Shown here: positions 4,085-61,611 of the stretch, piece after piece
How the letters are laid out: each line of letters starts with the position of its first letter
How positions within the stretch are numbered: position 1 is the stretch's first letter
From: Hemileia vastatrix
Taxonomy: Eukaryota > Basidiomycota > Pucciniomycetes > Pucciniales > Zaghouaniaceae
Assembly: GCA_030280995.1 (NCBI GenBank)
Contig: JASXTE010000001.1
Location: 27,852,106-27,916,105 of the forward strand
Direction of reading: 5' to 3'
DNA length: 64,000 nt
Made by a program: the position numbers and the translations under genes
Notes under the pieces: model-generated
Seen by the model: the letters and a program-made list of their open reading frames with translations, nothing else
What the model was told of the DNA's origin: nothing
Databases searched by the model: none

Positions 4085-4190
4085 TTTTAAATTCAACTGA
4101 TATGAAGAAAGAAGACAATAAGGTGAATTAGTCTTTTATTTTTACTTTTTATTTGAAAGAAATAAAATTAAAATAATAATAATAAATCTT

Positions 4191-4542
4191 TTTAGGATAG
4201 AAATCAACTAAATAATAATTAATTTATTAATTCAAAACAATTTAAAACCAGGATTATAAAATAATCAACTGAAGAAAATAAATTAAAAATTTTTTATTAA
4301 AAATTTTATGATAATTATTTTCAGGATTTAAATCAACTGATTAATTAACTACCAGGACTTAATGTCAACTGAAGTAATTAAAAAATTTTATTGTCAGGAC
4401 AATTTTTTAACTGGAACAAATAAAATTTAAATTATCATGACAAAAAGTCAACTGAAAATTATAATAATTAATATTAAAATATAATTTTTTATTACTTCTA
4501 GGACTACAAACATAATTGCTCTATTATTGTCAACTAGGAAAA
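4191..4542 (-). repeat. Gag leader of family A with repeated covarying mini-hairpins
   Basis: The AT-rich leader between primer region and gag holds at least six copies of a short motif, written on the plus strand as YAG-GAY-loop-RTC-AA-CTR. Clear copies are at 4191-4212 (TTTAG/CTAAA and GAT/ATC), about 4249-4271 (CAG/CTG and GATTAT/ATAATC), 4321-4340 (TCAG/CTGA and GATTT/AAATC), 4352-4370, 4436-4454 and 4501-4540 (TAG/CTA, long loop). Stem bases differ between copies but stay complementary, and the two unpaired A residues are constant. Copy 2 has the same arrangement at 18930-19428. What the hairpins do is unknown; RNA packaging or translation control would be guesses. Confidence 0.7.
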
Positions 4543-4746
4543 AAAAATATAATAATAAAAAATTAATTCCAAATTACCAGACACCTCCCCCTGTAAAATG
4601 AGCAAATTAATGCCACTTACAGAGTGCTGAGTAAAAGGAAATACGTAGCAGATGAAGAGTGCAAAGTGACCCACAAATATTAATATCAATAATTACCACA
4701 ATATATACAACGTTTAGTCAATATATGAACCTAATTTTTGGAGTGC

Positions 4747-4757
4747 GGTTCGATTCC
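4747..4757 (+). promoter_or_regulatory. tRNA T-arm/B-box-like site in family A primer region
   Basis: The plus strand reads GGTTCGATTCC, the tRNA T-loop consensus, followed by a short acceptor-like stretch ending in GCAG, about 20 bases before the LTR. Because the element is on the minus strand, this is the orientation expected for a sequence complementary to a tRNA 3' end. The match does not end in CCA and does not abut the LTR, so it is atypical as a primer-binding site. Copy 2 keeps it with one change at 19620-19630. Confidence 0.45.
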
Positions 4758-4776
4758 CGTTTGCAGAAAAAATTTT

Positions 4777-5714
4777 TGTCACGTGACGTATGACGTTTGT
4801 CGTTTCATTGCTCTCTTGTCCTTATAGGTACTCAAAAGCCAATGGTCCCTTCAATTTACGGCCTCAAATCACAATGCGCCCTTGATAATTCGGGAAGGTC
4901 TCCAATTGTCAAGGGGTCCTTTTGGGTCTAGAAGTTTATTCGAGTTTTATACGAGGAAATTTGGGGTTTTAATGAACTCTCAAAATCAAGTACATATTTC
5001 TTTAATCAATGTGATTGGTTTACTCAAATAATAAGAGGTAGATTTAAATATTAATATATTTTATAGATTAGAAATACGTAAATGTAAATACTAATGTTAT
5101 AAAGTATAGTAATAATTGTTTTATTGTAAGTGTAATAAGTAAGTAAGTAAGGAATGAATGAATCAAAAATCACAAAAGTGAAGGCCTTTTATAGGCAAAA
5201 CATGAGGGAATAAGAAACACGGAATTTACACAATCTACTGTAAGAATGTGAGAAATAAGATGACTAAAAGGAGTACATATATGACATAAGAAAATAATTT
5301 AATTGGTACATCAACAAGGGCATCAATTTTATTAGTAATAAAGTATGAGTTCCTTGGACTGTCACAATTAGTTACATCACAAATAAATTAATTGTATTAA
5401 TTTCACAGAATTTCAGATCTTTAAATGAAGTAATATAATAAACTTAAGGTTTTTCTTTTTTTTTCTTCTTTTTTTTATTATAATTTTATTATTAATTTTT
5501 ATTCCCAATCAACTTATACTATTTGAGCACAGTGTTAGGGAGTAAAAATGTATGGGACATTTATTAATTATTTATACTACTTAATATACTTAACTAGTTA
5601 GTTGTAAGTAATACAATAGTAAATAATTAATTGTTAGTAAGAAAAAGGGGCGTGTCTTCAACTCAGTAAAATAATTAATTATTTTACTGGGTAAGTCTAG
5701 TAGCCTGGCTGACA
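4777..5714 (-). repeat. Family A 5' LTR
   Basis: This 938-bp repeat starts TGTCACG and ends CTGACA on the plus strand. It is homologous over its length to 19650-20594, and in part to 49275-50048 and, inverted, to 11716-12542. Shared internal blocks are the end block AAGTCTAG..CAGCCTGGCTGACA, a block around AACTAGTTAATTTATTA, and the TATA region near 5190. The flanking target duplication cannot be tested because the other end is outside the window. Confidence 0.8.
5187..5193 (-). promoter_or_regulatory. LTR TATA box (TATAAAA)
   Basis: The minus strand reads GCCTATAAAAGGCC here. The same block sits in the copy 2 LTR (near 20072-20084), in the fragment at 49562-49578, and inverted at 12250-12262, which supports a real core promoter driving gag-pol of family A. 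The start site is not determined. Confidence 0.55.
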
Positions 5715-13620: not shown

Positions 13621-13643
13621 TATTCAATTTCCTTTATACTTAT

Positions 13644-13893
13644 CACCACACAATATGGGGGGTTAACTTGCTAGCAAGTCCACAACCTTGGACCCAAACT
13701 CACCACAGATTGAACACACATTGAGCTATTGATAAAGGAGCCATACAATAAGGGATGAACACCACTCAGCAGAACATTTTTAGGTGGGTGTTCAAGTAGA
13801 GTTCAGTATGAGTTCAGTCAGAGTTCCATCAGAGTTCCATCAGAGTTCAGGTTGAGGACTTGCTAGCAAGTCCACCCCCTATATTGCGTAGTG
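13644..13893. mobile_element. CACTA-type MITE, copy 1 (3-bp TSD TAT)
   Basis: This 250-bp element has terminal inverted repeats, left CACCACACAATATGGGG and right, inverted, CACTACGCAATATAGGGG. It is flanked by TAT at 13641-13643 and 13894-13896. Each end carries a CTTGCTAGCAAG palindrome core. The interior ends in a 10-11-bp tandem array built on GAGTTCAGTAT/GAGTTCCATCA. Copies at 48967-49183 and 61348-61608 share all this. CACTA ends with 3-bp duplications are the mark of the CACTA (En/Spm) superfamily; no transposase is encoded. Confidence 0.85.
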
Positions 13894-14046
13894 TATTGAA
13901 CAATTGTTTTTTTATATTGATTGGTTTTCTTTGAGTTGATACATTTTTTGAATACACTTAGAGGGCTACACTTGGATATTCAATATCCTGTTGCATATTG
14001 CATGAATATGTTGGGAAAGAGAAACGCACATTTGCCCTCATAAATT

Positions 14047-21741: not shown

Positions 21742-21849
21742 GGACCCCCATTTGAATACAAAAATAAGATAAAGAATAAATTCAAATTTCCATGTTATCA
21801 ACATTGTCTTTAATCTCCAGATTATCCCCATCTAGTGATCCTGGATTTA

Positions 21850-22649
21850 TGTCACCGGACGACCTACGCACAAGGTTGAGGGTGTTCCTGAAAGTGAGAT
21901 GAGGATTTTAGAGATTTCTTCAAAGCACAGAGGAATTGTTTGAGGAAGTTTTTCGAAGATGACTCAAAGGAAGAACTACTGCTTCAAGTTATATTCGAAA
22001 AGAATCTTAATATATTTTAAGGTAATACTAATATTCTTAGAATCTCACAAAGGGTTGTAACACTCAAAAATCAAAGATTTAAATTTAGAGATGATTATTG
22101 AGGGAAAAGGAAATGTATTATAATAATGATTTAACTTGCAGTTTTACCACTATTAACTATAAATATGTTTTATAATTTAATTCTAAAGAAACATTGAGCC
22201 AGAATCCAACCCCTTTTATATCTATTACTCCTCCTTGCATTGACCTCATACCCATCCCTCATTCCGCACACCACAGACAACCATAATTACACCCGTTACA
22301 CCTGGACCCTCCTCACTAACATCCATTAACCCTTTGATCCTCCACTAACCTTCCCGTCCTTGCTCACTACCCCTGTTAATAACCCACAGATACTTAATAA
22401 ACCTTTTAGAGGAGTATTGCATTGACTATTGCGCTGTGCGTTGCTTATCAAAGAAAATACTAAACACACTTTTGAGAATTGACTAATTTAGATTTAAAGT
22501 TTAGATTAGCGCAATTGAATAGTGAGTACACAAAAGGAAGTTGCCGTGGCAAGGTAGAATCGCTTTCTGCGCTTTGAGTATGGATTTAGACCACTGTTTT
22601 ATTTATTTAATGAGCTGATTTTGCCTTGAGTGTCACATGGTGTGTGAAA
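21850..22649 (-). repeat. Family B 3' LTR
   Basis: This 800-bp LTR starts TGTCACCGGACG and ends GTGTGTGAAA where its partner ends GCGCGTGACA. TATAAAA lies at 22214-22220 on the minus strand. Compared with 42760-43566 many changes are CG to TG or CA, for example in the last 20 bases. No clear polypurine tract is seen just inside it. Confidence 0.9.
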
Positions 22650-22885: not shown

Positions 22886-23977
22886 TATGGTAAGGTAAAC
22901 TCTTACAGTCGCCTTGCTGTAAGCAGAATCCGGAGGAGATATGTGGATTTAGCTGAAAACCCCGTCCTTCCAACAAAAATAACAAAATGGGAATTCTAAA
23001 TCACTAAGCTACCCAGTCTACTTGGATCTGATTGATAAAAATAATATTATGAAACTCTAAAATATTTAACGCTTATTGAGATTTAAAGAAAGTGGATGTT
23101 GAGAAAGAAATACTGATAACAACAATTAAGGTGTACCAGTGAAAGATCTGAAAAGATTGACTTTTATGTTTTTATAATAATTTGAATTTTTATGAGACAG
23201 CAATAATCAAGTCCCAGTGATGAAGACCTTTCTAAAGATACCCTGTATGAAGTGTGTTTTAAATTGTTGAGTAGTATTTCTAAAATGTTTTATATAAAAT
23301 ATAAAGTTATAAGGGTATTACAATTTTATTTAATTTGTTGAGTAATAAAAAATGAGACCATGGTGGTTAAAGATTAAGCTGTATGTTGTATCCCCCCCCC
23401 CTCAATTTCGAGTTTGAGAGGCGCTTAAGTATTCCTAGTCACGTGCCTAAGTTTTCCCCTCCAGAGCTCTCCCAGAGTCAATCCAGAGCCCGTACGGAGT
23501 CCGTACGGACTTCTGGACTCAATTAGAACCTTAAAAACTATAATAAAAAATCTAGAAAATTACACATGATAGAACTACTTCCCCTTTATATTCCAAACTA
23601 ATTTTCGTAGTCTGCGCAGCTCTAATTACCCCGTGAAAATTCATCAAAGTCAAGTAATTTCTGAAAACGTAAATATTTCTATAAAACTTTAAAATTCATT
23701 TAAAAATATAAGAAAAATAGTAAAAATTCTGGGAAAATTTCCCAAGGTTCTTGAGTGACTTGACTTGATACTTATAAACTTTTCAGACCGTAAAAATAAG
23801 TTTTCTCCGTAAAATAAATTGATTTTGTGTAGGCATTTGCTTTTAACCAAATTTCTTTATATTTGAAACTCAAATAAATTTAATAAAACCCTTTTACAAA
23901 ATAATAACGCCAATCTTGCACGCCGTAATAACTCCATTTAGGTACTTAGGTGCCATACTAAACTTTAGGCTACCACA
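22886..23977 (-). repeat. Family C 3' LTR
   Basis: This LTR starts TATGGTAAGG and ends GGCTACCACA; the ends are an imperfect inverted repeat (TATGGTA/TACCACA). It differs from the partner at 35063-36143 by few substitutions, several at CpG (for example ACCGTA versus ACCATA, CTCCGT versus CTCTGT), and by small indels near 23480. Confidence 0.95.
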
Positions 23978-35062: not shown

Positions 35063-36143
35063 TATGGTAAGGTAAACTCTTACAGTCGCCTTGCTTTAAG
35101 CAGAATCCGGAGGAGATATGTGGATTTAGCTGAAAACCCCGTCCTTCCAACAAAAATAACAAAATGGGAATTCTAAATCACTAAGCTACCCAGTCTACTT
35201 GGATCTGATTGATAAAAATAATATTATGAAACTCTAAAATATTTAACGCTTATTGAGATTTAAAGAAAGTGGCTGTTGAGAAAGAAATACTGATAACAAC
35301 AATTAAGGTGTACCAGTGAAAGATCTGAAAAGATTGACTTTTATGTTTTTATAATAATTTGAATTTTTATGAGACAGCAATAATCAAGTCCCAGTGATGA
35401 AGACCTTTCTAAAGATACCCTGTATGAAGTGTGTTTTAAATTGTTGAGTAGTATTTCTAAAATGTTTTATATAAAATATAAAGTTATAAGGGTATTACAA
35501 TTTTATTTAATTTGTTGAGTAATAAAAAATGAGACCGTGGTGGTTAAAGATTAAGCTGTATGTTGTATCCCCCCCCCTCAATTTCGAGTTTGAGAGGCGC
35601 TTAAGTATTCCTAGTCACGTGCCTAAGTTTTCCCCTCCAGAGCTCTCCCAGAGTCAAAGCGGAGTCCGTACGGACTTCTGGACTCAATTAGAACCTTAAA
35701 AACTATAATAAAAAATCTAGAAAAATTACACATGATAGAGCTACTTCCCCTTTATATTCCAAACTAATTTTCGTAGTCTGCGCAGATCTAATTACCCCGT
35801 GAAAATTCATCAAAGTTAAGTAATTTCTGAAAACGTAAATATTTCTATAAAAATTTAAAATTCATTTAAAAATATAAGAAAAATAGTAAAAATTCTGGGA
35901 AAATTTCCCAAGGTTCTTGAGTGACTTTACTTGATACTTATAAACTTTTCAGACCATAAAAATAAGTTTTCTCTGTAAAATAAATTGATTTCCTGTAGGC
36001 ATTTGCTTTTAACCAAATTTCTTTATATTTAAAACTCAAATAAATTTAATAAAACCCTTTTACAAAATAATAACACCAATCTTGCACGCCGTAATAACTC
36101 CATTTAGGTACTTAGGTGCCATACTAAACTTTAGGCTACCACA
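35063..36143 (-). repeat. Family C 5' LTR
   Basis: This 1081-bp partner of 22886-23977 has the same ends TATGGTAAGG and GGCTACCACA. It is followed by the ACGG target duplication and then by the second half of the split antisense gene. Confidence 0.95.
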
Positions 36144-42744: not shown

Positions 42745-42758
42745 AGAATTAAATTATA
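42745..42758 (-). promoter_or_regulatory. Candidate self-priming primer site of element B
   Basis: One base inside the 5' LTR the coding strand reads TATAATTTAATTCT. This is a perfect 14-base complement of AGAATTAAATTATA in the same strand of the LTR (43101-43088), which begins 36 bases downstream of a TATAAAA (43137-43131), where transcription should start. No tRNA-like match is present. The arrangement fits Tf1/sushi-type self-priming known in fungal chromoviruses. Confidence 0.6.
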
Positions 42759-42759
42759 C

Positions 42760-43566
42760 TGTCACCGGACGACCTACGCACAAGGTTGAGGGTGTTCCTG
42801 AAAGTGAGATGAGGGATAAAGTTTAGAGACTTCTTCGAAGCACAGAGGAATTGTTCGAAGAAGTGAATCGAAGATGACTCAAAGGAAGAGCTACTGCTTT
42901 GAGCTATATTTGAGAAGAATCTTAATATATTTTAAGGTAATACTAATATTCTTAGAATCTCACAAAGGGTTGTAACCCTCAACAATCAAAGATTTAAATT
43001 TAGAATTGATTATTGAGGGAGAAAAGGAAATGTATAATAATAATGATTTAACTTTCAGTTTTACCACTATTAACTATAAATACGTTTTATAATTTAATTC
43101 TAAAGAAACATCGAACCAGAATCCAACCCCTTTTATATCTATTACTCCTCCTCCAATTGACCTCATACCCATCCCTCATTCCGCACACCACAGACCACCA
43201 TAATTACACCCGTTACACCTGGACCCTCCTCACTAACATCCGTTAACCCTTAAATCCTCCACTAACCATCCCGTCCTTTCTCACTACCCCTTTTAATAAC
43301 CCACAGATACTTAATAAACCTTTTAGAGGAGTATTGCATTGACTATTGCGCTGTGCGTTGCTTATCAAAGAAAAGACTAAACACACTTTTGAGAATTGAC
43401 TAATTTAGATTTAAAGTTTAGATTAGCGCAGTTGAATAGTGAGTACACAAAAGGAAGTCGCCCTGGCAAGGTAGAATCGCTTTCTGCGCTTTGAGTATGG
43501 ATTTAGACCTCTGTTTTATTGATTTAATGAGCTGCTTTTGCCTCGAGTGTCACGTGGCGCGTGACA
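42760..43566 (-). repeat. Family B 5' LTR
   Basis: This 807-bp LTR starts TGTCACCGGACG and ends GTGGCGCGTGACA. TATAAAA is at 43131-43137 (minus strand), with the predicted transcript start near 43101. It is the better preserved of the pair at CpG sites and is followed by the ATTTA duplication. Confidence 0.92.
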
Positions 43567-48261: not shown

Positions 48262-48775
48262 GTTTGAAAAATTTTGTGTGTCAGATTTGGAAATTTGGCC
48301 ATACCCTCCCTTGAATTTTATTGAAGTAAGAGATGAAAATCACCAAAATATTATATAATTACATAAACTAATAAATAAATAAATAAGATAAGTCAAATTC
48401 ATAGCTTTAAAGTAATAAAAATTCCTCAAGCCAAATTGCAGACAATTCTAGAAACTAAGTTTGGGAATTTCTACAACTATTGGCTAGAGGAACCCTATGA
48501 AACAATTTAATGTTGTCATGATTACCTTTTATGCAATACAAGGTCATTGGCTCATTACTTTAATTTAGTAAATTGAAATATCAGATTTATGTATTAAAAT
48601 TTATAAAAGAATAAAAAATATTCAAAAAACTTTAAAAATCCCCATACTTTTTTGATCTACTTAAAGGTTTGAAAATTTATTAATTTTACCTTTTTTTTTA
48701 CTTTTTTGATTTGTTGGACTAACTTTTGACTAATCTGATAAGAGCAGCAAAATGAGTGAATGGTTAAACATATGA
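48262..48775 (-). pseudogene. Truncated 3' copy of the Tet-like gene region
   Basis: This block is homologous to 55725-56215 of the Harbinger element: the last part of the tandem repeat, the TCCTCAAGCCAAATTGCAGA block, the CATGATTACC..ACAAGGTC block, CCCCATACTTTTT and the last codons of the dioxygenase gene (T-H-F region). Sequence breaks off where upstream coding should follow. It shows that a second, fragmentary copy of the gene and its downstream DNA lies 7 kb away. Confidence 0.65.
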
Positions 48776-48966: not shown

Positions 48967-49183
48967 CATTGCACAATATGGGGGGTGGAGTTGCTAGCAA
49001 GTCTGAAACCTTGGACTCAAATTCAACACAGATTGAACACACATTTATCTATTGAAAAAGGAGCCATACAATAAGGAATGAACACCACTAAGAGGAACAG
49101 TTTTAGGTGGGTTTTCAAGTAGAGTTCAGTCTGAGTTCAGGTTGGGAACTTACTAGCAAGTCCATCCCCTATATTGTGTAGTG
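48967..49183. mobile_element. CACTA-type MITE, copy 2 (TSD TGA)
   Basis: A 217-bp copy with ends CATTGCACAATATGGGG and, inverted, CACTACACAATATAGGGG. TGA at 48964-48966 and 49184-49186 is the duplication, confirmed by related uninterrupted repeat units nearby reading CCACTGAACC. The internal tandem array is shorter than in copies 1 and 3. Confidence 0.85.
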
Positions 49184-50048: not shown

Positions 50049-52390
50049 CTAATACTGACTCTGATTTTCAAAATTTCACAAAAACTTGAGAAGTGATGAT
50101 GAAAATTCCAACAAGAGGGAGATAAATGTTTAGAAAAGAATCAGATAAGAGTTTAAGAAGCCCTATTCTCTAATTATGCAAGATAAAAACATGAAATAAA
50201 TTAAGTTAAATTCAGAAAAAAAGGCTCAACTTTAAAGGTCAAAATCTCAGCAACCACTGAAGCTACTTTGAACCAGTTTGTGGGATATAAAAGATAGGCT
50301 TCAGGAGAATATTAAGTTAAAGGATATGTGATTTAAGTAAAGCTATCTTTAATTTGTTATATAAAAAATGTAAAAAAAAAGTCAAATTGGGAAGAAAAGG
50401 CTCAGTTTCAAAGTTCAATATCTCAGAAACCACTGAACCAAAATCAAATCTGTTTGTGGGAAATGAAAGATAGCCTTTAGGAAAATCTTCAGAAAAAAGG
50501 ACATTATATTTTAAGAAACACAACCCTAATTCTGAGTCTTATTTTCAAACTTTTACAAAAACTTGAAAATTGATAATGAAAATGACAGCATGAGGAGTTG
50601 AATAAGTCCACTTTTATCCAGATATGAGTCCTACATATATTTAAGTATGAAGTTTTTCATAGAAAGAAAGAGATATCATATAGAAATAAAAAATGAGATG
50701 AAACTTACCTTGATTGAAAGGTAGGAAAAATAGAGTGAGAAAGAGAGAAGTTGGAATTTGGGGGAAATTGAATATGGAGCAAGTTAAGTGCTTAAAGAAT
50801 GTGCAATGTATGTGTTTCAATGACATGGAATAAAAAAAGTGAAATAGGGTAAATGGAGAATAATGACCAAGAAAAGGAGGGATGAATAGTAGGATTTTCA
50901 GACTGAATATTCCCAGGACTGAGTAAAAATTGCTTATGAATTATTTTAAACACATTTAGTACACATGGGAACAATAAGTAAAGGTACACAAGTTGTGTAC
51001 ATAAGTGAAATTAATGATTAAATGGAATATATGCCATTATAATACATTATATACATGCATATATCCACTTTTTATAAGTTTAATGTACTTAATATTAAGT
51101 TTGAATATTTCATGGTAATTTTAAGAACCTTAAAGATAAGGATACATAATTTTTAGGTGGACTTAAAGCTGTTGTTTTCATTATTTTACAGAGAAAACAA
51201 GAAATGCGCTTTAAATCACTTAAAGGTTGAATATATGAACTATAAATTTAATAATATTAAAAATGTGCCTTGACAAATCAATTTGTCTTAAATAGAACTT
51301 TTGATTTGGATATTAAAATGCATAATAATAACACTTTTCAAATTTGGTGTTTTTATGCCAGAAATGGCTTCTGTGTACTGGCAACATACTGCCTGCATTT
51401 GTCCCATGTGAATAGCTTCATTTTTAGCAAAGTTTAAATTTTCACACTATAATTACCCCACATTGTATGCCCACTATGGGGAAAAACACTAAAATAAGTA
51501 ACAGGCATTTTTTTAGTGTTCTGATTTCATTATTAGTGCATTGAACTCATTATATCTCCATGCAATATTGGGAGCAGACTTGCTAGCAAGTCTGCAACCT
51601 TGAACCCAAATTCATATAAAATTGAGTAAACATTGAGGTAGTGATGAAAAAATAATGTTGAATTAGTGAATTTACTTTTAAAACACTTTGAAGCTATTTT
51701 AAAAAATTTATTGAAGCACAGGAAATCATTGGTAATAATATTCTTGAGGCTTGAACTACAGGAATTATTAAAGGAATATTAAAAAAAATTGAACCCCACT
51801 ACCCAACCAGGCTGGCACATGCAAAATATAAAAAAAATCATTCTTATGAGATAATAAGATTTTCATATGGATTGAACTAAAAAAATTTTTGAATACTTTT
51901 ATAATATTTTTTAGCTATAATTATATATAGAAATTATCCAATATTATAAAAAATTATGCAAGAAAAAAAATATTCAATTGATGATGTTAATCTAATTTTT
52001 ATCAGTAAAAGTTTTCAAATATACATATTTGTTCTTATTGTATGAAAAGATATTCTTAAAAATTTTTCAAGCTTGAAAATATTTGGGTGAGATGCAGAAC
52101 TCTTTAATATGAATTTAAAACAGATTCAGTTAAAATTATAAGTTATAAAATTTATTATTATACATACTTCAAAATTAATAAAAATATATGAGTACTATTT
52201 TTTAATAAAAATAACTTACCATTATTTTCATTATATCAAAAATTAAGTTTCAAACATTTATGGGAATGAAAAATATGGCTATTAAAAAGTGTGCAATACC
52301 TATAGGTTTTTTTTCTGTTTTCACACCAGTTCACTTTCCATTCCTTATAATTTAGTATATATTTATATTATTTTATTTTTTTAAGATTAT
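50049..52390. other. Intergenic DNA, no gene seen
   Basis: Carries two further units of the GGCTCAACTTTAAAGGTC dispersed repeat (50209-50320, 50376-50520). At about 51558-51640 there is a left-end-only relic of the CACTA MITE, with the GACTTGCTAGCAAGTC palindrome. The rest is AT-rich without coding features. Confidence 0.6.
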
Positions 52391-53482: not shown

Positions 53483-53507
53483 AATAGGGGGTATCAATGT
53501 TGACCGA

Positions 53508-53566
53508 TCCGCAATTAAATTAATTGCGGAAAATAATCTGCATACCCCAATTATCTTCCGCAATTA
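53508..53566. repeat. Subterminal TCCGCAATTA sites, left end
   Basis: Three copies of TCCGCAATTA occur at 53508-53517, 53521-53530 (inverted) and 53557-53566. Two more occur at the right end (60796-60805, and 60843-60852 inverted). Clustered subterminal sites are typical binding sites for the Harbinger DNA-binding partner, here by inference. Confidence 0.6.
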
Positions 53567-53836
53567 TTTTTGCTAATAATTGGGTTATTAGACACTTTAC
53601 GTGTCAATGTTCACCTCTTATCTGACATTTTTATCCTCAATATTTCATAACCACATCTTGGACAACTTTCTGGATATCCCAGCCTTCTACTTTGCTGCGC
53701 ACTTCCATTCTCATCCCATCCTGTTCATTCTATCCGCTCAGAATTTCTCCCCATTTCATCTATTTGATTCTGCTCCTTTTCATCTCTCTATCTCATCTGC
53801 TTGATTCTGCTCCTTTTCATCTTCATTTATAATAAT

Positions 53837-55240
53837 ATGCCTCATCATCCTAGATATTCTCAAAGGCAGCCATCACCCAGTTGTTCTTCAATTCCCACTA
53901 CTTCCTCTTTCCCCCGCTCAGCCAAGAAATCAAAGACTGTTCAATTAAAAAAAGATGAACATCTCATTCTTATCAACTGGCTGAAAACCAAATCTAACTA
54001 TGATTCTTGTTTTGGTACTGAGTATGCCACTAAAGTAGGACGGCCCCCCGCATCAAAAGTTAATGGCTATCTTCTAATGGCAAATGAATTACGCAATAAG
54101 ACCAAGGGAAGGATTGATCTTTTGCCTAAACAGATGTCGGAACGCTTCAAGCATTACCGAGAAAAATACAAGAAGGCAAAGGCTCTTTCATCTTCCACTG
54201 GTTTTGGGATTACCGACAATGATATAACTAAGGGCATAAAATCCATAGACGATAAACTTGATTCTTTATGTCCTTACTTTAAAGAGATGGATGCAATTTT
54301 TGGAGAGCGAGCTGATGTTAATCCTGTAAACATGTTGGATGGAGAAGATCCTATCTCCGAACATGATGTCAAAGCAAATCTTTTCCCATCCTCTTCCTCC
54401 ACTCAAGCCTCCCCTCATTTGAATGAGACATATCTAAATAGCTTTTCTGTAGATCCTATAGGTGATTTAACCCAACCAAATCTAACTCATGTCTGTTTCT
54501 TTTTTCTTTTATCTTATCAATTCTATTTTTTATTTACTTATCTTTTTCTTATTTCTTAAAAGGCTGATGAACAAACCCAGGATCCTCAATCAACTGAGTC
54601 TGAAGCTAGTGACAATGATGAGGAGGAAAATGCTACATTGAACAAAAAGAGAAGGGCTTCAACTAGTCTAAATTTCCTCTTCCAAAGAAGACAAAAAAGT
54701 GATACTTCATCACAAACACCTTTTTCTTCGATGGAACAGTTTTTAGAGAAACGTGATGCTGGTAAGTGATATCATACCTCTTATTACTTTACTCTGCTTT
54801 TTTTCTACTTTATGTTAATTTTTATTCTCACTCTAGAACAAGTGGAAATTGCTAAAGAGACTCTGAGCTTTGAAAAGAAGAAATACAAGCTCTCTTTAAG
54901 GAGGGATGACAGAGTACAAGATTTGGAAGAGAGGAAGTATGAGCTCTCCTTACGGAAGGATGATCGGATCCAAGATTTGGAGGAGAAGAAGTTTGAGCTC
55001 TCTTTACAGAAGGATGGTAGGGCCCAAGATTTGGAGGAGAAGAAGTTTGAGTTAACTCTTAGTATTGAAAAATCCAAAAATAAGGAAAAAACACTCAAGC
55101 ATCAAAACTTAATGGAACAGATGAAGTATAAGCATGATCTCCAAGAAAGTTCTAAAAAGAAAGATTTCTTGATCAAATGCATTAAAGCAAACAAATCTGT
55201 TGAAGAAATAGAACGTTTAATGAAATTTTTTGTTGACTAG
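53837..55240 (+). CDS. SANT/Myb-like Harbinger partner protein with coiled coil
   Basis: Three exons, 53837-54490, 54563-54761 and 54837-55240, with introns of 72 nt (GTCTGT..TTAAAAG) and 75 nt (GTAAGT..CTCTAG), give 418 residues and a closed frame. Residues about 38-115 form a SANT/trihelix-like domain (L-I-x-W-L..F-K-H-Y-R-E-K-Y-K). Then comes a T-G-F-G..L-C-P-Y-F..M-D-A-I-F-G-E-R segment, as I recall from rust relatives. An acidic stretch follows, then a coiled coil with three 18-residue repeats of the DDR-x-Q-D-L-E-E-x-K-x-E-L-S-L kind. In Harbinger systems this protein carries the transposase to DNA and the nucleus (family knowledge). ATG 53837 is chosen over the in-frame ATG 53801 because the latter adds only hydrophobic residues. 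Confidence 0.8.
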
Positions 55241-55374
55241 TTTCTTTTATTTCTTTCACACTTCATGTGTTCATATTTATTTGTACATAAATTTTACAAT
55301 TATTTTCTGTATTTCTTGAAATATCGTATTTTAATGTTAAATATTCTTTTTTTAAATAAAATTTTCAAGTCTCC

Positions 55375-55795
55375 TTTGAAAATTTGACAATCCCTCACCC
55401 CTGGATTTTTTTGAAGTAAGGGGTGGGTATCACAAAAATTCTTTCATGTCATGAATCTTGAAAGTTTTATATGAAAATTTGGCTTTACTACCCCCTGAAT
55501 TTTACCGGTATCCCAAAAATTCCTACATGTCAAGAATTTCACAAGTCTTATAAGAAATTTTGGCACAACCCCCCATGGATTTTATTGAAGTAAGGGACGG
55601 GTATCACAAAAATATTTACAAGTCAAAAAAATTCTATATCTGTTTAAAAAAATTGGCAATACTCTCCCCTGCATTTTATTGAAGCAAGGGGTGGGTATCA
55701 CCAAAATTTTTCTAAGTCATCAATTTCACATGTCAGATTTGAAAATTTGGCAATACCCCCCCCTGCATTTTATTGAAGTAAGGGGTGAAAGTCAT
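55375..55795. repeat. Tandem repeat, five ~85-92-bp units inside Harbinger element
   Basis: Units share GAAAATTTGGCAATACCCCC, TGGATTTTATTGAAGTAAG, GGGTGGGTATCACAAAAAT and a GTCA..ATTTCACA block. The last unit has a relative at 48262-48340. The array sits downstream of both converging genes (SANT-like and Tet-like), so it may serve as a shared 3' region. Confidence 0.75.
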
Positions 55796-56130
55796 CTAAA
55801 TTTAATATAATTACATAAATTATTAAATAAATATCTAATATATATCAATTTCCCTAGTTTAAAGTAATGACAATCCCTCAAGCCAAAATGCAGACCAAGT
55901 CGAGAAACAAAAGTTTGGGACTTTCCACAGGTATAGGCAAGAGGAACCCCATGAAACAAATAAATGTTATCATGATTACCTGTTATACAATACAAGGTCG
56001 ATGGCTCATCACATTACTTGAGAAAATTGATATATAAAAAATATTTATTAAAAATTTATGAAAAAATATAAAATTTTCGATGACAACTCTAATCCCCATA
56101 CTTTTTGGATCTAGATAAAGTTTTTTTAAA
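55796..56130 (-). other. Region downstream of Tet-like gene, conserved in partial copy
   Basis: Conserved with 48340-48680 although non-coding by the chosen model. A 67-residue minus-strand frame (55995-55792) overlaps it but is not open in the other copy, so an untranslated region is more likely. Confidence 0.45.
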
Positions 56131-57338
56131 TCAAATAACTTTACCTTCTTTCTTTACCTTATTGATTCTTTGTATCAACTTATTACTGATTTGAAATGAG
56201 CAACCGAAATGAGTGAAATCTTGACAGGATTCCAAACCAGGAGGAGCTTTGGTCGTTTTATGATTATCCTTAGAAGAATTCCAAATAGTTTCAATGATAC
56301 CATTTCCCAAACCAAAATCAATGATGCACCGGTGGTCTGGAAAATATAAACCATGTCCTTTGATTTTAGCTGGAGATGGTATTGGGTGGCCAGTTATTGG
56401 ATTGATATATGAGAATATTCCAAAAGTAAGAAAATTGGCATCATTCCTATCGATATGAATCCTATTGTGGAATCCAGAATGAGTGATAATAACATTAGAA
56501 AATAAAAGATATTTGTGGCTGATATCTTCCAATTTGGAGTCACACCAATTTGGTATTCCAACTTTGGTTGCAAGTTCATGATTTTTTTCAAATGCCTTAT
56601 TACAGAGCTTTTTGAGTCGAAGAGCAAGAAAAGAATTAAAGGAAGGTAGAGTGTCCCATAAGCAAAAATATTCATCTTTTTGTGCTTTAGTGATATTATT
56701 GAGCAATGAATATATACCTATATAATTGAAATAAGTGAAATGATATTAAGAATGGAACAAAAATTATTAGACATACCAAGAGAATATCCTTTGACAAAAC
56801 CAGGTCTCCAACCAAAACCAATCATGATACCACCCAACAAATTCTTATTCCTTATAGGTAACCAAACCAAAGCCATTTGATAAAGAGTTATGATAAGGTC
56901 GGATAGTTGATTAAAAGCTTCATCTTTTACACCATCGAATGAATGAACTTCCAAAATGAATTGAGGCTTAAAAGCATTGCTGATAACTGCAACAACTCGA
57001 TCATCTCCAAATTCTGTTAGATATTTGATATCTTCTGGTAATTTTTTCGGATATTGAATTTTTTTATCTACTTTAGTTTTATAAAAAAAAATGTTTGGGA
57101 TATGACAAAAATAACTTTCGCAGAGATTCTTTTTTTTAAAATATCTTTTCTTCTGATGAGACTGATTATCTTTAATTTTTTTTGATGATTTAGAAGATGA
57201 TTGTATGGAAGTTGATTTCAAAGAAGATGATAGAGTTGATTTCAAAGAAGATGATAGAGATGATAAAGATGAAGATGATAAAGAAGATAAAGATGAAGAT
57301 AAGAGAGAAGTAAGGGGTGAATCAGAAAAAGAAGACAT
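56131..57338 (-). CDS. Tet/JBP-like 2OG-Fe(II) dioxygenase
   Basis: Exons 57338-56777 and 56717-56131 flank a 59-nt intron (GTATGT..ATATAG), giving 382 residues. The N-terminus (about residues 5-70) is Ser/Leu low complexity, then a Lys/Arg-rich basic stretch. The core shows the iron-binding H-x-D (H275, D277, in R-I-H-I-D-R), a G-I-F-S-Y block, F-P-D-H-R..I-D-F (residues 313-322) and a distal His candidate (H340), then F-T-H-F-G-C-S-F-Q. This order matches the Tet-like 2OG-Fe(II) oxygenase family expanded in rust fungi, as I recall it. The position where I would expect the 2OG-binding Arg reads His (H357), so activity is uncertain. Tet/JBP enzymes oxidise methylated or T bases in DNA. It lies inside the Harbinger ends on the same strand as the transposase. 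Confidence 0.7.
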
Positions 57339-57950
57339 TTTTTTGATCTGAAAAAAAAATTAATTGTCAATAAAATTTTAACTCAAATTTTTTTTAAAAA
57401 AAATTCCTACCTAATAATAAAAAAAGCTGTTTTTTTATTTTAAAAATAAAATTGAAAAAAAAAACAAAAAATCAGTAAAAATTTTTCCAAAAAAAAAATT
57501 TATAAAAAAAAACCTGAGGTTTTATTTTAAAAAACACAATCAAAGCAAAATCCTATTAAAAAAAATTAATAATTAAATTCATTCAAAAAGAAAATTTCAG
57601 TAAAAATTAAATCACAAAAAAAAAAAATTTAAAAAAAAAATTAAAAGTGAACCTGAAGATTGGTTATTAAAAACCTTCTCACAAGATCATGAAAAAAAAA
57701 AAAAATCAGTAAAATCAAAATAAAAAATAAAAAAATTATTTAAAAAAAATCAAAATCACAAAAATTAATTATAGAAAAAATAAAAATAAAATTATAAACC
57801 TTTTTTGTTTTGTAAATAAGAGGGACAGTCCTTATCAGAAAGAATTTTTTTTTTTCTATATTACTGCAAAAAAAATAAAAAAAATAATCAAAATTACAAA
57901 CAAAAATTTGTTAGTATCTTTATTTGAAAGTTGGTAACCCATCTTTATCT
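57339..57950. other. A-rich low-complexity upstream region
   Basis: Poly-A-rich DNA (AAAAAAATT type) lies upstream of the Tet-like gene. No gene seen. Confidence 0.6.
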
Positions 57951-57954
57951 CCCA

Positions 57955-58780
57955 TAAATGTCCCCTTTTCCCCCTCAAATGCTCTCCTTGCCTGCCTCAA
58001 AATCCCCCTGAAATACCCCCCTTTCCCCCCTCTTTAGGTCCCTCATCACCCTCCTTCCCCCCTCTTTAGCTGCCTCAAACCCCCCCCATTCCCCCCTCTT
58101 TAGCTGCCTCAAACCCCCCCCATTCCCCTCACCTTAGGCGCCTCAACCCCCCCCCCATTCCCCTCACCTTAGGCGCCTCAAACCCCCCCCCATTCCCCTC
58201 TCCTTAGGCGCCTCAAACCCCCCCATTCCCCTCTCTTTAGGCACCTCAAACCCCCCCTTCCAATCACCTTACCCCCTCCCAAACCTTTACCACTTTCTCT
58301 ACCCCCCCCCCCCACCTCCTTGTTAACGAACGATCTGTAACGATCGTTCATTAATAAACAGGGGGGGGGGGGGGGGTAGAGGAGGATGTAACGATTGGGT
58401 AGGGGGGTAAAGTGAGTAGAAGGGGGGGAAGGGGGGGTGTTTGAGGCGCCTAAAGAGAGGGAAAGGGGGGGTTTGATGTGGGTAAATAGAGGTGAAGGGC
58501 GGGGTTTGAGGCGGCAAAAGAGAGGTGAAGGGGGGGGGGTTTGAGGGACATAAAGAGAGGGGAAGGGGGGTGTATTGAAGCACCTAAAAAGAGGGGAAGG
58601 GGGGTGATGAGGGACCTAAAGAGGGGGGAAAGGGGGGATTTGAGGCAGCTAAAAAGGGGGTAAAAAGGGGGTCAGAGACAGGTAAAGAGAGGGAAGAAGG
58701 GGGGCCTTGAGGATGATAAAGAGAGGTGAAGGAGAGAAAAAAAAACAAAAAAAAAAGAGAAAAAAGAGAAAAAAGCAAAA
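57955..58780. repeat. Large C-rich/G-rich inverted minisatellite with central hairpin
   Basis: 57955-58320 holds C-rich units (TTAGGCGCCTCAAACCCCC, about 30-36 bases) and 58360-58780 the complementary G-rich units (TTTGAGGCGCCTAAAGAG). At the centre GAACGATC (58328-58335) pairs with GATCGTTC (58342-58349). Long G runs (up to about 16) allow quadruplexes. It lies between the Tet-like gene and the transposase. Confidence 0.85.
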
Positions 58781-59234
58781 CAAAAATTAGTTTACCCTAG
58801 AAAAAAAATAAAAGAAGCACTTACAAAAAAAACAAAAAAACCAAAAAAAAACCAAAAAAAAAGCAAAAAAAAGCAAAAAAAAAAAAATCATGATTAGCAA
58901 ATAAAAAACCATGAAAAAAGAAAAAAAATGACCTACCTGGTGAGTTGAGTTGAGAAAATAAATGCAACCAAAATATTTGAGGGATGTTTGAGGAGAGGAT
59001 GAAAAGGATATGAGTGATGAATGAAAAAAAAAATCACTGAAAAAATATGCGATATAAGAAAATATGCGATTTCATGTTGAGGAAGTGAAAGAAAACCAAT
59101 GAGCCATCCAAAAAAAAGATATTCACCATAAATTCAAAAAAAAAATGAATATGCAACAAACCAAAATACAAAACCAAGTGATTAAAGTACACAAAGAGGA
59201 CATTTGGAAAGTATGAAAACATAAAAATTAAAAA
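58781..59234. other. Spacer, no gene seen
   Basis: A-rich homopolymer stretches, then the 3' flank of the transposase. A 62-residue frame at 59034-59222 is rejected as composition-driven. Confidence 0.5.
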
Positions 59235-60545
59235 TTAAAAGGGTGAAGAGAAATGTTGGAGAGTAATTAGCATTATAATGGGGCGTATGCCGGTTGATTG
59301 AATGATTTGTGAATCAAGGGAGGGGAGTGCCAGTGGTGGTTCAGGATCCTCTTCTTCATAAAGATCATTCCACTCATCCTTTAAATCAGCTAGAATATTG
59401 TGGAGTATTACACAAGTCAAGATCCAATGATTTGCAGTTTTGATCTCCAATTTTTTTTGAAATTGGATTCTGAGCTCCCGAAGACTAGAAAATCGTCCCT
59501 TTAAAATACCTATAGCATGTTCAATTTGTACTCTTCATTGTGCAAGGTGATAATTAAAGGCAGTTTTGGGGTCATTTTCTGAAGTTGCACCACGGAAAGC
59601 AGGTATAATGTACTTTCCACTTGCATATGCTGAGTCTGCAAGGAGGTACTGAGATTCGTCAAAGTATGATTCAGGGGATTGAGAAATCCTCATTCTTTGG
59701 AAGACGGAAGAGTCATGAAATGATCCAGGGCAGCCACTGTGAAAAGCAATAAATTTTTTATTGACATCGCATACAAGTTGAACGGCAATAAAGTATCTAG
59801 AAAGAAGATAAAAAGTTAGATTGTGAAAGATGAGAACTTGGAGAAGATTTTGAAGAAACCTTTTTTTGCGATCAAAATAATGGTTGCCATCATGAGCAGG
59901 CTTTTGACTCAAAGGGATGGTTGTGCCATCAACAAAACCTATACAGCCAGGGAAACCTTCAGCTTGCATTAATTGAGAGGATTCAAGTCGCTGTTCTGGA
60001 GTTGGCCAAGCAAGAGTTTGAGACTTGAGGGAAAGGATAGCAATCATACAGCGCTTGGTGTATAATATCACGGTACTATATCCTATGTTAAAGAGATTAT
60101 CCAAACGTCTTACGGCAGCACCATTTCCATTTGAGCCAAAGTGACATAGAGCAACAGCAAGTTGGATGGCAGGATTACGCTGTTTGTTATGAGAATTGTT
60201 ATGGAAGATAGGATGATCGGAGATGAGTTGATAAAGTTTGAAGAAAGAATCGGGAGAAGTTCTAAAAAGTTGTGTGAAGTTTAAATGAGGAATGTTGAGA
60301 ATGCAGGCCAGATCATATCGGGGATCATGATAAAGATTTGGCCCCCTGGTGATGATGTAACGCTTTTTGGAAAGAAAACACATATAAGCTAAAGAATCTT
60401 CCAAATCAGAGTCAGATTTATAGTAAAGAACTAAAAGAAAAGTAATAGCATTCATTGTTGAGTGAAGTAGCTTCCTAGTAGAGAGGTTTTTCATTGTTGC
60501 CGGTGGAAGGGTTATGTGATGAGGGAAGTGGGAATTCACCGCCAA
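59235..60545 (-). pseudogene. PIF/Harbinger DDE transposase with one internal stop
   Basis: One frame from ATG 60545 to the stop at 59235-59237, with a 63-nt in-frame intron-like segment (59859-59797, GTTTCT..TTTCTAG) that splits the D-R-K-K-R / Y-F-I-A-V-Q block. A single TGA lies at 59535-59537. Catalytic D206 (G-F-V-D-G-T) and D304 (L-A-D-S-A-Y, numbering with the intron kept) are present. The catalytic Glu (V-Q-I-E-H-A) lies just after the stop, so a terminated protein would lack it. TGA can come from CGA by one C-to-T change. Length (about 415 residues if joined) is normal for the family. The transposase cuts and pastes the element with the SANT-like partner. Confidence 0.88.
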
Positions 60546-60758
60546 ATGTGTAGTTGGGGTGTGTAGATAGAAAAAAAACTTAAGTGTTTGCCTCCAAAAT
60601 TAAGTAGCATAGAGTGAGGAAATACTTAAGGATGGCATCAGCAATTATAAGTCATGTGACTTTCTTAAAAATCCATCATGTATGAGAAGAGTTTGGGATC
60701 AGGAAGTAGGAATGGAAATTGGGGTATAAGAGGCGGGATAATGCATTATCGTGGATTT
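60546..60758. other. Right part of Harbinger element, transposase leader
   Basis: Non-coding leader of the transposase gene; no clear TATA box recognised. Confidence 0.5.
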
Positions 60759-60790
60759 CTTATCCACTAGCCCTGGGGCTAGTGGATAAG
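60759..60790. repeat. Perfect 15-bp hairpin near right end of Harbinger element
   Basis: CTTATCCACTAGCCC and its exact inverted copy are separated by two bases, about 85 bases from the right end. A diverged relative occurs at 6893-6925. Confidence 0.8.
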
Positions 60791-60877
60791 AATCTTCCGC
60801 AATTAATAATGTCTGATCCCAGGAAAAAAAATTCCTGATCCCTAATTGCGGATTCCTGAACATTGATACCCCCTAAT

Positions 60878-61344
60878 GATTAATTTGTTTGATAGAACTA
60901 CAATGATCTTTGAATTAAATTATTGTATCCAAATAATGATTTACAGAAAATTGCGTTTAAATGTTTTAACTTTTTGCTTGATATTTTTTTATGATTACTA
61001 TACATACATAAATAAGTACCTGTAATAACTATGAATTTAAGAAATTGAATAAGTAAGAACTCTTAAAATATGTACCATTATCAATTCAGTAAAGAAATAA
61101 ACCAATTGAGTCCTTTTATTTTACTACACTATTTTAACTCTAATGTCTATCCAAGTTTTTACATCAATATATAACTTATTTTTTTATTGAAATTAGATTT
61201 AGCTACAAATTAAATCTGTTGTACAACTGTGTTTAAAGCAATGTTAAACTATAAGAAAAAATTGAATTTTAAAAAAATTTATATTACATTTTTAATTAAA
61301 AAATTAAGTGTATTTTTATATCAAAAAGTTTCAAATTGAATAAT
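60878..61344. other. AT-rich intergenic DNA, no gene seen
   Basis: No coding or repeat features recognised. Confidence 0.6.
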
Positions 61345-61347
61345 TTT

Positions 61348-61608
61348 CACCACACAATATGGGGGGCGGACTTGCTAGCAAGTCCGCAACCTTGGACCCA
61401 AACTCACCATAGATTGAACACACATTGAGCTATTGATAAAGGAACCATACAATCAGGGATGAACACCACTCAGCAGAACAGTTTTAGGTGGGTGTTCAAG
61501 TAGAGTTCAGTATGGGTTCAGTATGAGTTCAGTCTGAGTTCCATCTGAGTTCCATCTGAGTTCAGGTTGAGGACTTGCTAGCAAGTCCACCCCCTATATT
61601 GCGTAGTG
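61348..61608. mobile_element. CACTA-type MITE, copy 3 (TSD TTT)
   Basis: A 261-bp copy with ends CACCACACAATATGGGG and, inverted, CACTACGCAATATAGGGG. TTT lies at 61345-61347 and 61609-61611. Both ends hold the 16-bp palindrome GACTTGCTAGCAAGTC. The internal array has six units of GAGTTCAGTAT/GAGTTCCATCT type, the longest of the three copies. Confidence 0.88.
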
Positions 61609-61611
61609 TTT

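What the first reader, a model, noticed from the sequence alone, without database searches (positions are those of the whole stretch)
53486..60874. A Tet/JBP-like dioxygenase gene inside a PIF/Harbinger transposon
The Harbinger ends, 3-bp duplication, SANT-like gene and DDE transposase define the element. Between them lies a spliced 382-residue gene with H-x-D and the conserved blocks of Tet-like 2OG-Fe(II) oxygenases. Tet/JBP genes in basidiomycetes have been linked mainly to KDZ transposons. Finding one as cargo of a Harbinger element would be a different partnership, perhaps letting the transposon alter methylation of its own DNA.
Basis: partly seen in the sequence, partly recalled or inferred. 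Interest (0 to 1): 0.87.

Follow-up and report, generated by a model that had tools for sequence, protein, structure and literature searches.

The report
Harbinger jumping gene carrying Tet-like oxygenase
A very abundant fungal jumping gene carries, besides its transposase and a probable DNA-binding protein, a gene for a Tet-like enzyme that may chemically change DNA methylation marks; such pairings were reported in rust fungi in 2025, and this one is a structurally distinct version.

Summary
The element (53486-60874, duplication AAT) has inverted ends, a Myb/SANT-like gene, an intact spliced 382-residue gene matching Pfam 2OG-FeII_Oxy_6 (Tet-like, E 3.9e-37), and a DDE_Tnp_4 transposase with one in-frame stop. 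Tet is no stray insert: its signature occurs 1,686 times in the genome, and on one contig 18 of 27 exact copies lie 2.4 kb from the SANT gene in divergent orientation. A second Harbinger family (56-58% identical transposase) has the same three genes in the same order, Tet being about as old as the transposase and more conserved in protein. The partnership is not new: Kojima (2025) described Tet-bearing Harbingers (PHISTA) in rusts, with TA duplications and no Myb/SANT gene. Empty sites for three insertions here show a 3-bp duplication, so this is a separate variant. Some internally rearranged copies lost Tet and still amplified (one junction in 92 copies), so Tet is not needed in cis. CpG decay does not differ between Tet-bearing and Tet-less copies (p 0.47, small sample). 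Anti-silencing by oxidising methylcytosine is the likeliest role, but inferred.

The parts
53483..53485 (.). target-site duplication, left copy (AAT)
   Evidence: empty-site match best with 3 bp counted once
53486..53517 (+). left terminal inverted repeat (AGGGGGTATCAATGTT...ATCCGCAATTA)
   Evidence: end pattern found 3,287 times genome-wide, control 0
53837..55240 (+). Myb/SANT-like gene, exons 53837-54490, 54563-54761, 54837-55240; 418 aa, no internal stop; charged C-terminus with three 18-aa repeats
   Evidence: gene model; repeats; PF13837 E 0.0055, below cut-off; predicted helical domain, best PDB match Sap1 DNA-binding domain; homologues in Phakopsora and Puccinia striiformis
55356..55810 (.). 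array of about 94-bp subrepeats downstream of Tet; three hold the TIR core GGGTATCA (55425, 55599, 55693); left breakpoints of L039, of L041/L042 and of the block shared with L069 fall here
56131..57338 (-). Tet-like 2OG-Fe(II) oxygenase gene, exons 57338-56777 and 56717-56131, intron 56718-56776; 382 aa; H275, D277, H340
58007..58672 (.). C-rich / G-rich inverted array of about 34-bp units between Tet and transposase; right breakpoint of the Tet-less form of L041/L042 lies here (about 58477)
59238..60494 (-). DDE_Tnp_4 transposase gene with one short predicted in-frame intron; one in-frame stop in this copy (codon 320 of the unspliced frame, before the catalytic E)
   Evidence: 88 of 115 listed copies have an open frame of 454
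60843..60874 (-). right terminal inverted repeat
60875..60877 (.). target-site duplication, right copy (AAT)

Best explanation
This is one copy of a high-copy PIF/Harbinger DNA transposon lineage, probably in a rust fungus, that encodes three proteins: a DDE transposase, a Myb/SANT-like protein that presumably brings the transposase to the element ends (both roles by analogy with known Harbingers), and a Tet-like Fe(II)/2-oxoglutarate oxygenase. The Tet gene was probably already in the common ancestor of two Harbinger families of this genome and has been kept under protein-level constraint between them. Most likely it oxidises 5-methylcytosine on transposon DNA and so relieves silencing of the family, acting at least partly in trans. 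This copy can no longer make a full transposase but its Tet and SANT genes are open. Shown here: anatomy, 3-bp duplication, genome-wide linkage, divergence and constraint between two families. Inferred: catalysis on 5mC, anti-silencing role, action in trans.
For: PF20515 match and triad. The HxD, distal H and the THFGCSFQI block are invariant in 4 of 4 aligned sequences. 14 Tet/transposase pairs within 9 kb among 150 x 115 best hits, all same strand, 3.39-4.05 kb apart; about 0.4 expected by my arithmetic. The Tet 42-mer occurs 1,686 times and the SANT 44-mer 2,619 times at up to 2 mismatches, controls 0. On contig C2, 18 of 27 exact Tet sites have an exact SANT site 2.39-2.46 kb away in divergent orientation, 0.57 expected. 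A second family (L069) has the same three genes, order and orientation. Window versus L069: Tet exon 2 pS 0.62 and pN 0.11; transposase (first part) pS 0.69 and pN 0.25; SANT pS 0.68 and pN 0.32; four-fold differences 18/38 and 12/21 for the Tet exons, 25/45 and 13/22 for the other two. 131 of the 150 best Tet exon-2 hits have no stop (150 scored of 14,650 candidates). Private changes at CpG are enriched (21 of 138 changes at 60 of 1,690 sites), as expected if copies are methylated.
Against: No methylation, expression or enzyme data. No difference in CpG decay between Tet-bearing (11 of 84 private changes) and Tet-less copies (10 of 54), Fisher p 0.47; only 5 Tet-bearing copies were compared. 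One Tet-loss junction amplified to 92 copies, and 0 of 20 sampled copies of the most abundant transposase of the second family have Tet in the expected interval, so Tet is not required in cis. Exon 1 among 10 rows of the window family (9 distinct loci) shows dN/dS 1.5, i.e. no constraint among recent copies. Against simple co-inheritance: the window and L069 share a DNA block of 81% identity that includes non-coding sequence downstream of Tet (el. 2158-3598), whereas transposase DNA is 72-75% identical, and Tet exon 1 has a lower pS (0.45); later exchange of a Tet-bearing block is not excluded. The nearest named relative is a Puccinia protein of unknown activity (38%).
Confidence: 0.6

Rival explanations
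1. The Tet gene is a captured passenger: it travels with the element but gives it no advantage, and its conservation reflects shared ancestry of recent copies.
For: A Tet-less form amplified well: 92 copies of one junction, carried by 49 of the 115 best transposase hits. Exon 1 is unconstrained among recent copies. No local protection from CpG decay seen.
Against: Between the two families Tet protein change is much lower than synonymous change, and lower than in the transposase or SANT gene. The same position and orientation is kept in a second family. 1,686 copies of the signature.
Confidence: 0.21
2. The enzyme is active but makes another mark (oxidised thymine, 6mA oxidation or a bulky adduct), used by the element as a self-mark during transposition and not for removing methylcytosine.
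For: PU-type sequences are far from characterised Tet enzymes, and PMC12730594 leaves other modifications open. The residue 10 positions after H340 varies: Lys in P0001-P0003 and in 5 of 9 genomic copies of the window family, Glu in the window copy, in 3 others and in L069 and L070.
Against: No fourth large gene, such as a glycosyltransferase, stands out among the frames of the element; small frames were not searched.
Confidence: 0.12
3. The element is simply a PHISTA-type Harbinger as described in 2025, with nothing different.
For: Same probable host group, Tet-bearing, Harbinger-type transposase, three genes. A single insertion here can be misread as a TA duplication (AATA|GGGGG...CCCCC|TAAT); that reading fits the flanks of 14 of 15 copies.
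Against: For 3 insertions in 2 families, 4 of 4 empty-site comparisons score best with 3 bp counted once; the TA reading predicts the same joined sequence as the 'none removed' rows, which scored lower with gaps. 14 of 15 copies with both ends have identical 3-bp flanks. The third protein has weak but repeated Myb/SANT signals.
Confidence: 0.12
4. A Tet gene inserted by chance into one Harbinger copy.
For: Related Harbinger copies without Tet exist.
Against: 1,686 signatures, fixed geometry, and a second family with the same arrangement. The Tet-less copies read in full have replaced sequence, not an empty site.
Confidence: 0.01

Closest known systems
TET+ PHISTA (Harbinger with TA duplications) of Puccinia and Austropuccinia, Kojima 2025 (PMC12730594)
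   Same: Harbinger-type DDE transposase, Tet/JBP gene, a third gene, in rust fungi
   Different: PHISTA is defined by 2-bp TA duplications and its third protein lacks Myb/SANT (as stated in the paper); here the duplication is 3 bp and the third protein is Myb/SANT-like (weak profile support). Transposase trees were not compared.
Canonical PIF/Harbinger and Nuwa elements (3-bp duplications; Nuwa with transposase plus Myb/SANT protein, as stated in PMC12730594)
   Same: 3-bp duplications, DDE_Tnp_4 transposase, Myb/SANT-like accessory gene
   Different: carries a third gene, Tet; the duplication is mostly AWT and not the TWA that I recall as usual
KDZ (Dileera, Kyakuja, Zisupton) Tet-bearing transposons
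   Same: Tet/JBP gene as transposon cargo in basidiomycetes
   Different: other transposase, and 7- or 8-bp duplications (as stated in PMC12730594)
CcTET of Coprinopsis cinerea (5mC and 6mA oxidation, as reported in PMC12730594)
   Same: transposon-related fungal Tet enzyme with HxD...H
   Different: AG type in that paper; the window protein has no sequence match to a Tet entry in PDB at E up to 10
Sap1 DNA-binding domain of fission yeast
   Different: 11% identity; may reflect only a common helical arrangement

Membership tests
PIF/Harbinger superfamily | DDE transposase of the DDE_Tnp_4 type | tested here: met
   PF13359 2.6e-12 and 6.2e-6 for the two halves; 8.3e-25 in the second family
PIF/Harbinger superfamily | 3-bp target-site duplication | tested here: met
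   14 of 15 copies with both ends; 3 insertions with empty sites, 4 comparisons
PIF/Harbinger superfamily | Myb/SANT-like accessory protein | tested here: inconclusive
TET+ PHISTA | TA dinucleotide duplication | tested here: not met
   4 of 4 empty-site comparisons score best with 3 bp
TET+ PHISTA | third protein without Myb/SANT domain | tested here: inconclusive
   weak Myb/SANT signals here; PHISTA third proteins not available for comparison
TET+ PHISTA | transposase inside the PHISTA clade | not tested
Tet/JBP-like 2OG-Fe(II) oxygenases (Pfam 2OG-FeII_Oxy_6) | profile match over most of the domain | tested here: met
   128.7 bits, cut-off 27, profile positions 26-211 of 211
Tet/JBP-like 2OG-Fe(II) oxygenases (Pfam 2OG-FeII_Oxy_6) | HxD...H facial triad | tested here: met
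   H275, D277, H340 by sequence; invariant in 4 of 4 aligned sequences; not checked on a structure
Tet/JBP-like 2OG-Fe(II) oxygenases (Pfam 2OG-FeII_Oxy_6) | double-stranded beta-helix with placed 2OG-binding residue | tested here: inconclusive
   model pLDDT 41, unusable
Tet/JBP-like 2OG-Fe(II) oxygenases (Pfam 2OG-FeII_Oxy_6) | oxidation of 5-methylcytosine | not testable with these tools
   needs an enzyme assay
KDZ transposons | 7- or 8-bp duplications | tested here: not met
   3-bp duplication; transposase matches DDE_Tnp_4

The most novel reading that the evidence does not exclude
Tet acts as a shared, diffusible anti-silencing product of a Harbinger community: a large body of Tet-bearing elements lifts methylation for the whole family, and Tet-less and transposase-shortened deletion forms, moved in trans, burst under that cover. 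Tet would then be a public good, long conserved in the lineage yet repeatedly lost by free-riding copies.
Probability: 0.2. Interest if true: 0.75.

Novelty: new variant of a known kind. Interest (0 to 1): 0.5.

Why it matters
It shows that Tet carriage by Harbinger elements is not confined to elements with TA duplications (PHISTA): an element with 3-bp duplications and a SANT-like gene carries Tet too, in two families of one genome. With 1,686 Tet signatures beside Tet-less sister forms in the same genome, it offers natural pairs for testing whether a transposon-borne Tet changes methylation in cis or in trans, which the paper read here proposes but calls not experimentally validated.

Tried and rejected
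Chance insertion: rejected. PHISTA with TA duplication: rejected on the duplication.

'Tet-less copies are the rule': this was my first reading after 2 of 20 sampled transposase copies had the window-type Tet and 3 of the 30 best had a Tet-type junction. The genome-wide counts corrected it (1,686 Tet signatures against 92 copies of the one loss junction counted). The list of best transposase hits (115 scored of 19,385 candidates) is biased to a young Tet-less burst: 49 of 115 carry its junction, 14 pair with Tet, 52 neither.

Purifying selection among recent copies: not shown. Exon 2 gives 0.21 but those copies were picked by exon-2 protein score; exon 1 gives 1.49. L039 is the same locus as L002 and was counted twice (10 rows, 9 loci).

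Tet structure: unusable model, so no fold search with it. PDB by sequence gave no Tet match (three VP4 capsid-protein chains at E about 0.4, taken as chance). Homologue search with the whole Tet protein gave 1 hit, the core 3. Search of the SANT alignment against PDB sequences gave only a heat-shock protein at E 0.59.

Not done: transposase tree against PHISTA or Nuwa; expression; species identification ('rust' rests on the nearest named homologues and the large TE-rich genome); genome-wide transposase count (not completed). Rows dropped: 2 of 13 fetched copies lacked a recognisable right end (C95, C260:21034262); 1 of 15 copies had mismatched flanks (C34:28147640). L077 is undetermined and L082 has a 66% Tet piece overlapping the outside of its left end; neither counts as Tet-bearing. 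10 of the 22 TIR pairs are undetermined. The 22 pairs come from the first 100 of 3,287 places, all on C2. Of the second family's Tet-less copies only L111 was read in full.

Print searches: (open-licence PMC only) found one paper on Tet-bearing Harbingers, PMC12730594. Of it I read the outline, parts 1-5 of 7 of the text and the figure legends; not the figures, supplements or parts 6-7. Of PMC12210899 I saw one passage. All other papers: search listing only.

Full report
What is there. Its ends match at 29 of 33 aligned bases, the first of which belongs to the duplication, and it is flanked by AAT. From left to right it holds a SANT-like gene on the + strand (three exons, 418 aa), a set of about 94-bp subrepeats of which three contain the core of the terminal repeat, GGGTATCA, the Tet-like gene on the - strand (one 59-nt intron, 382 aa), a C/G-rich inverted array, and a DDE transposase on the - strand. 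In this copy the transposase frame has one in-frame stop just before the catalytic glutamate (catalytic residues assigned by eye), while 88 of the 115 listed copies have a 454-residue open frame. So this copy probably no longer makes a full transposase; its Tet and SANT genes are open.

Tet-like enzyme. Pfam 2OG-FeII_Oxy_6 (described as Tet-like) matches with E 3.9e-37, 128.7 bits against a cut-off of 27. The HxD motif is H275/D277, the distal histidine H340; these and the block THFGCSFQI are invariant in the four aligned sequences. The nearest named relative is a Puccinia striiformis protein, 38% identical over 88% of the searched part. The position 10 residues after H340, near where many 2OG oxygenases have a basic residue (recalled), is Lys in the three outside relatives and in 5 of 9 genomic copies of the family, Glu in the window copy, three other copies and the two divergent loci L069 and L070. 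Its role is unknown. The structure model failed (pLDDT 41), so the 2OG-binding residue is not placed.

Ends and duplication. Thirteen further Tet/transposase pairs had their ends fetched; 11 of 13 have both ends. With four earlier elements, 15 copies have both ends readable and 14 of 15 have identical 3-bp flanks outside AGGGGG...CCCCCT: AAT 7, ATT 6, ATA 1 (tabulated by eye). A TA duplication with GGGGG ends also fits 14 of these 15, so I looked for empty sites. Joined flanks of three insertions (window, L040, and L111 of a second family) match paralogous unoccupied sequence (L092; L012 and L090; L030). In 4 of 4 comparisons the match scores best, with no gap at the junction, when exactly 3 bp are counted once; the L111 match has one gap elsewhere. 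The TA reading predicts the same joined sequence as the 'none removed' rows, which scored lower with 3 or 4 gaps. The duplication is therefore 3 bp.

Linkage of the three genes. Among 150 Tet and 115 transposase hits (the best of 14,650 and 19,385 candidates), 14 pairs lie within 9 kb, all on one strand, 3.39-4.05 kb apart; about 0.4 would be expected at random (my arithmetic). The Tet 42-mer, up to 2 mismatches, occurs 1,686 times, the SANT 44-mer 2,619 times, the exact end pattern 3,287 times; every reversed control gave 0. On contig C2, 18 of 27 exact Tet sites have an exact SANT site 2,388-2,455 bp away on the opposite strand; 9 of 27 have none within 6 kb. The Tet gene is a regular part of a very abundant element.

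A second family. Locus L069 carries an element of about 6.5 kb with related ends (AGGGGGTGTCAG) and AAT duplications, and the same three genes in the same order and orientation. Identity to the window copy is 82% (Tet exon 2), 62.5% (Tet exon 1), 56-58% (transposase) and 43% (SANT) by tblastn. Codon comparison gives pS/pN of 0.62/0.11 and 0.45/0.22 for Tet exons 2 and 1, 0.69/0.25 and 0.83/0.25 for the two transposase parts, 0.68/0.32 for SANT. Four-fold sites differ at 18/38 and 12/21 in Tet, 25/45 and 6/7 in the transposase, 13/22 in SANT. Synonymous sites are near saturation, but Tet looks about as old in this pair as the transposase and more conserved in protein. Two results point the other way: exon 1 has a lower pS, and the shared DNA block (el. 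2158-3598, 81%) runs into non-coding sequence downstream of Tet while transposase DNA is 72-75% identical, so a later exchange of a Tet-bearing block is possible. A third locus, L070, has SANT plus Tet but no transposase match in the 9.8 kb read. So 2 of 2 other Tet loci that I read are beside the SANT-like gene.

Forms without Tet. L041 and L042 have the same ends, SANT and transposase, but el. 2156-4992 is replaced by unrelated repeat sequence. The left junction of this replacement occurs 92 times, 78 of them exact over 40 bp: most simply one event, then a recent burst. It accounts for 49 of the 115 best transposase hits, which is why a sample of 20 of those hits showed window-type Tet in only 2. 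In the second family the best 150 transposase hits (of 11,096 candidates) are all open and at least 98% identical to L069; 0 of 20 sampled have Tet in the expected interval, and the one read in full, L111, is a 2.86-kb transposase-only form. Conversely, four Tet-bearing elements on C2 (two of 5.5 kb and two of 6.1 kb) have a full SANT side but a shortened transposase side (not read). Of 22 elements on C2 with both exact ends, 8 hold Tet, 4 the loss junction, and 10 are undetermined. So internal deletion goes in several directions, and Tet is not needed in cis for amplification.

Is there local protection? In 1,690 bp of the transposase end, private C-to-T changes at CpG make up 11 of 84 private changes in 5 Tet-bearing copies and 10 of 54 in 27 Tet-less copies, Fisher p 0.47. 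CpG is enriched among changes in both, as expected for methylated DNA, but nothing suggests that Tet shields its own copy. The sample is small and the two classes differ in age.

What is known. Kojima (PMC12730594, December 2025) lists Tet-bearing transposons of seven lineages in rusts, among them 15 Harbinger families named PHISTA, with TA duplications and a third protein without Myb/SANT, and proposes escape from methylation-based silencing. The duplication length (tested) and probably the SANT-like gene set this lineage apart; whether its transposase falls inside or beside PHISTA was not tested.

Verdict. A real, abundant Tet-bearing Harbinger, a new variant of a known kind. The anti-silencing role is the best explanation, inferred from enzyme family and conservation; the existence of successful Tet-less forms argues that, if Tet helps, it helps in trans.

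Noticed in passing
window 22886-23977 and 35063-36143: Direct repeats of about 1.09 kb, 97.5% identical, enclosing gag/pol-like frames: an LTR retrotransposon, Gypsy-like from its reading frames (recalled, no profile search).
   Followed up: no
window 21845-22647 and 42753-43564: A second pair of direct repeats, 93.6% identical over 0.8 kb, enclosing the first pair: possibly a nested insertion.
   Followed up: no
window 13636-13894, 48972-49140, 61340-61609 (also 51540-51649): Short element with inverted ends (ATATGGGGGGCGGACTTGCTAGCAAGTCCGC), several copies in the window; the same sequence starts the replacement segment in Tet-less Harbinger copy L041.
   Followed up: partly
window 48279-48760: 80% match to the Tet downstream subrepeats and Tet 3' end (55731-56217) without a Tet protein match: perhaps a relic of another Tet-bearing element.
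   Followed up: no
window 55425, 55599, 55693: Internal subrepeats contain the core of the terminal repeat (GGGTATCA); possibly internal binding sites of the transposase or SANT-like protein. Breakpoints of L039, L041/L042 and the L069 block fall at el. 2119-2158 in this array.
   Followed up: partly
L111 and the hits: The second family's transposase is present in at least 150 nearly identical open copies; the one read in full is a 2.86-kb transposase-only form: probably a very recent burst.
   Followed up: partly
L069:8371-9801: Long simple array of a short repeat (translates as ILYFIFY repeats) next to the second-family element.
   Followed up: no
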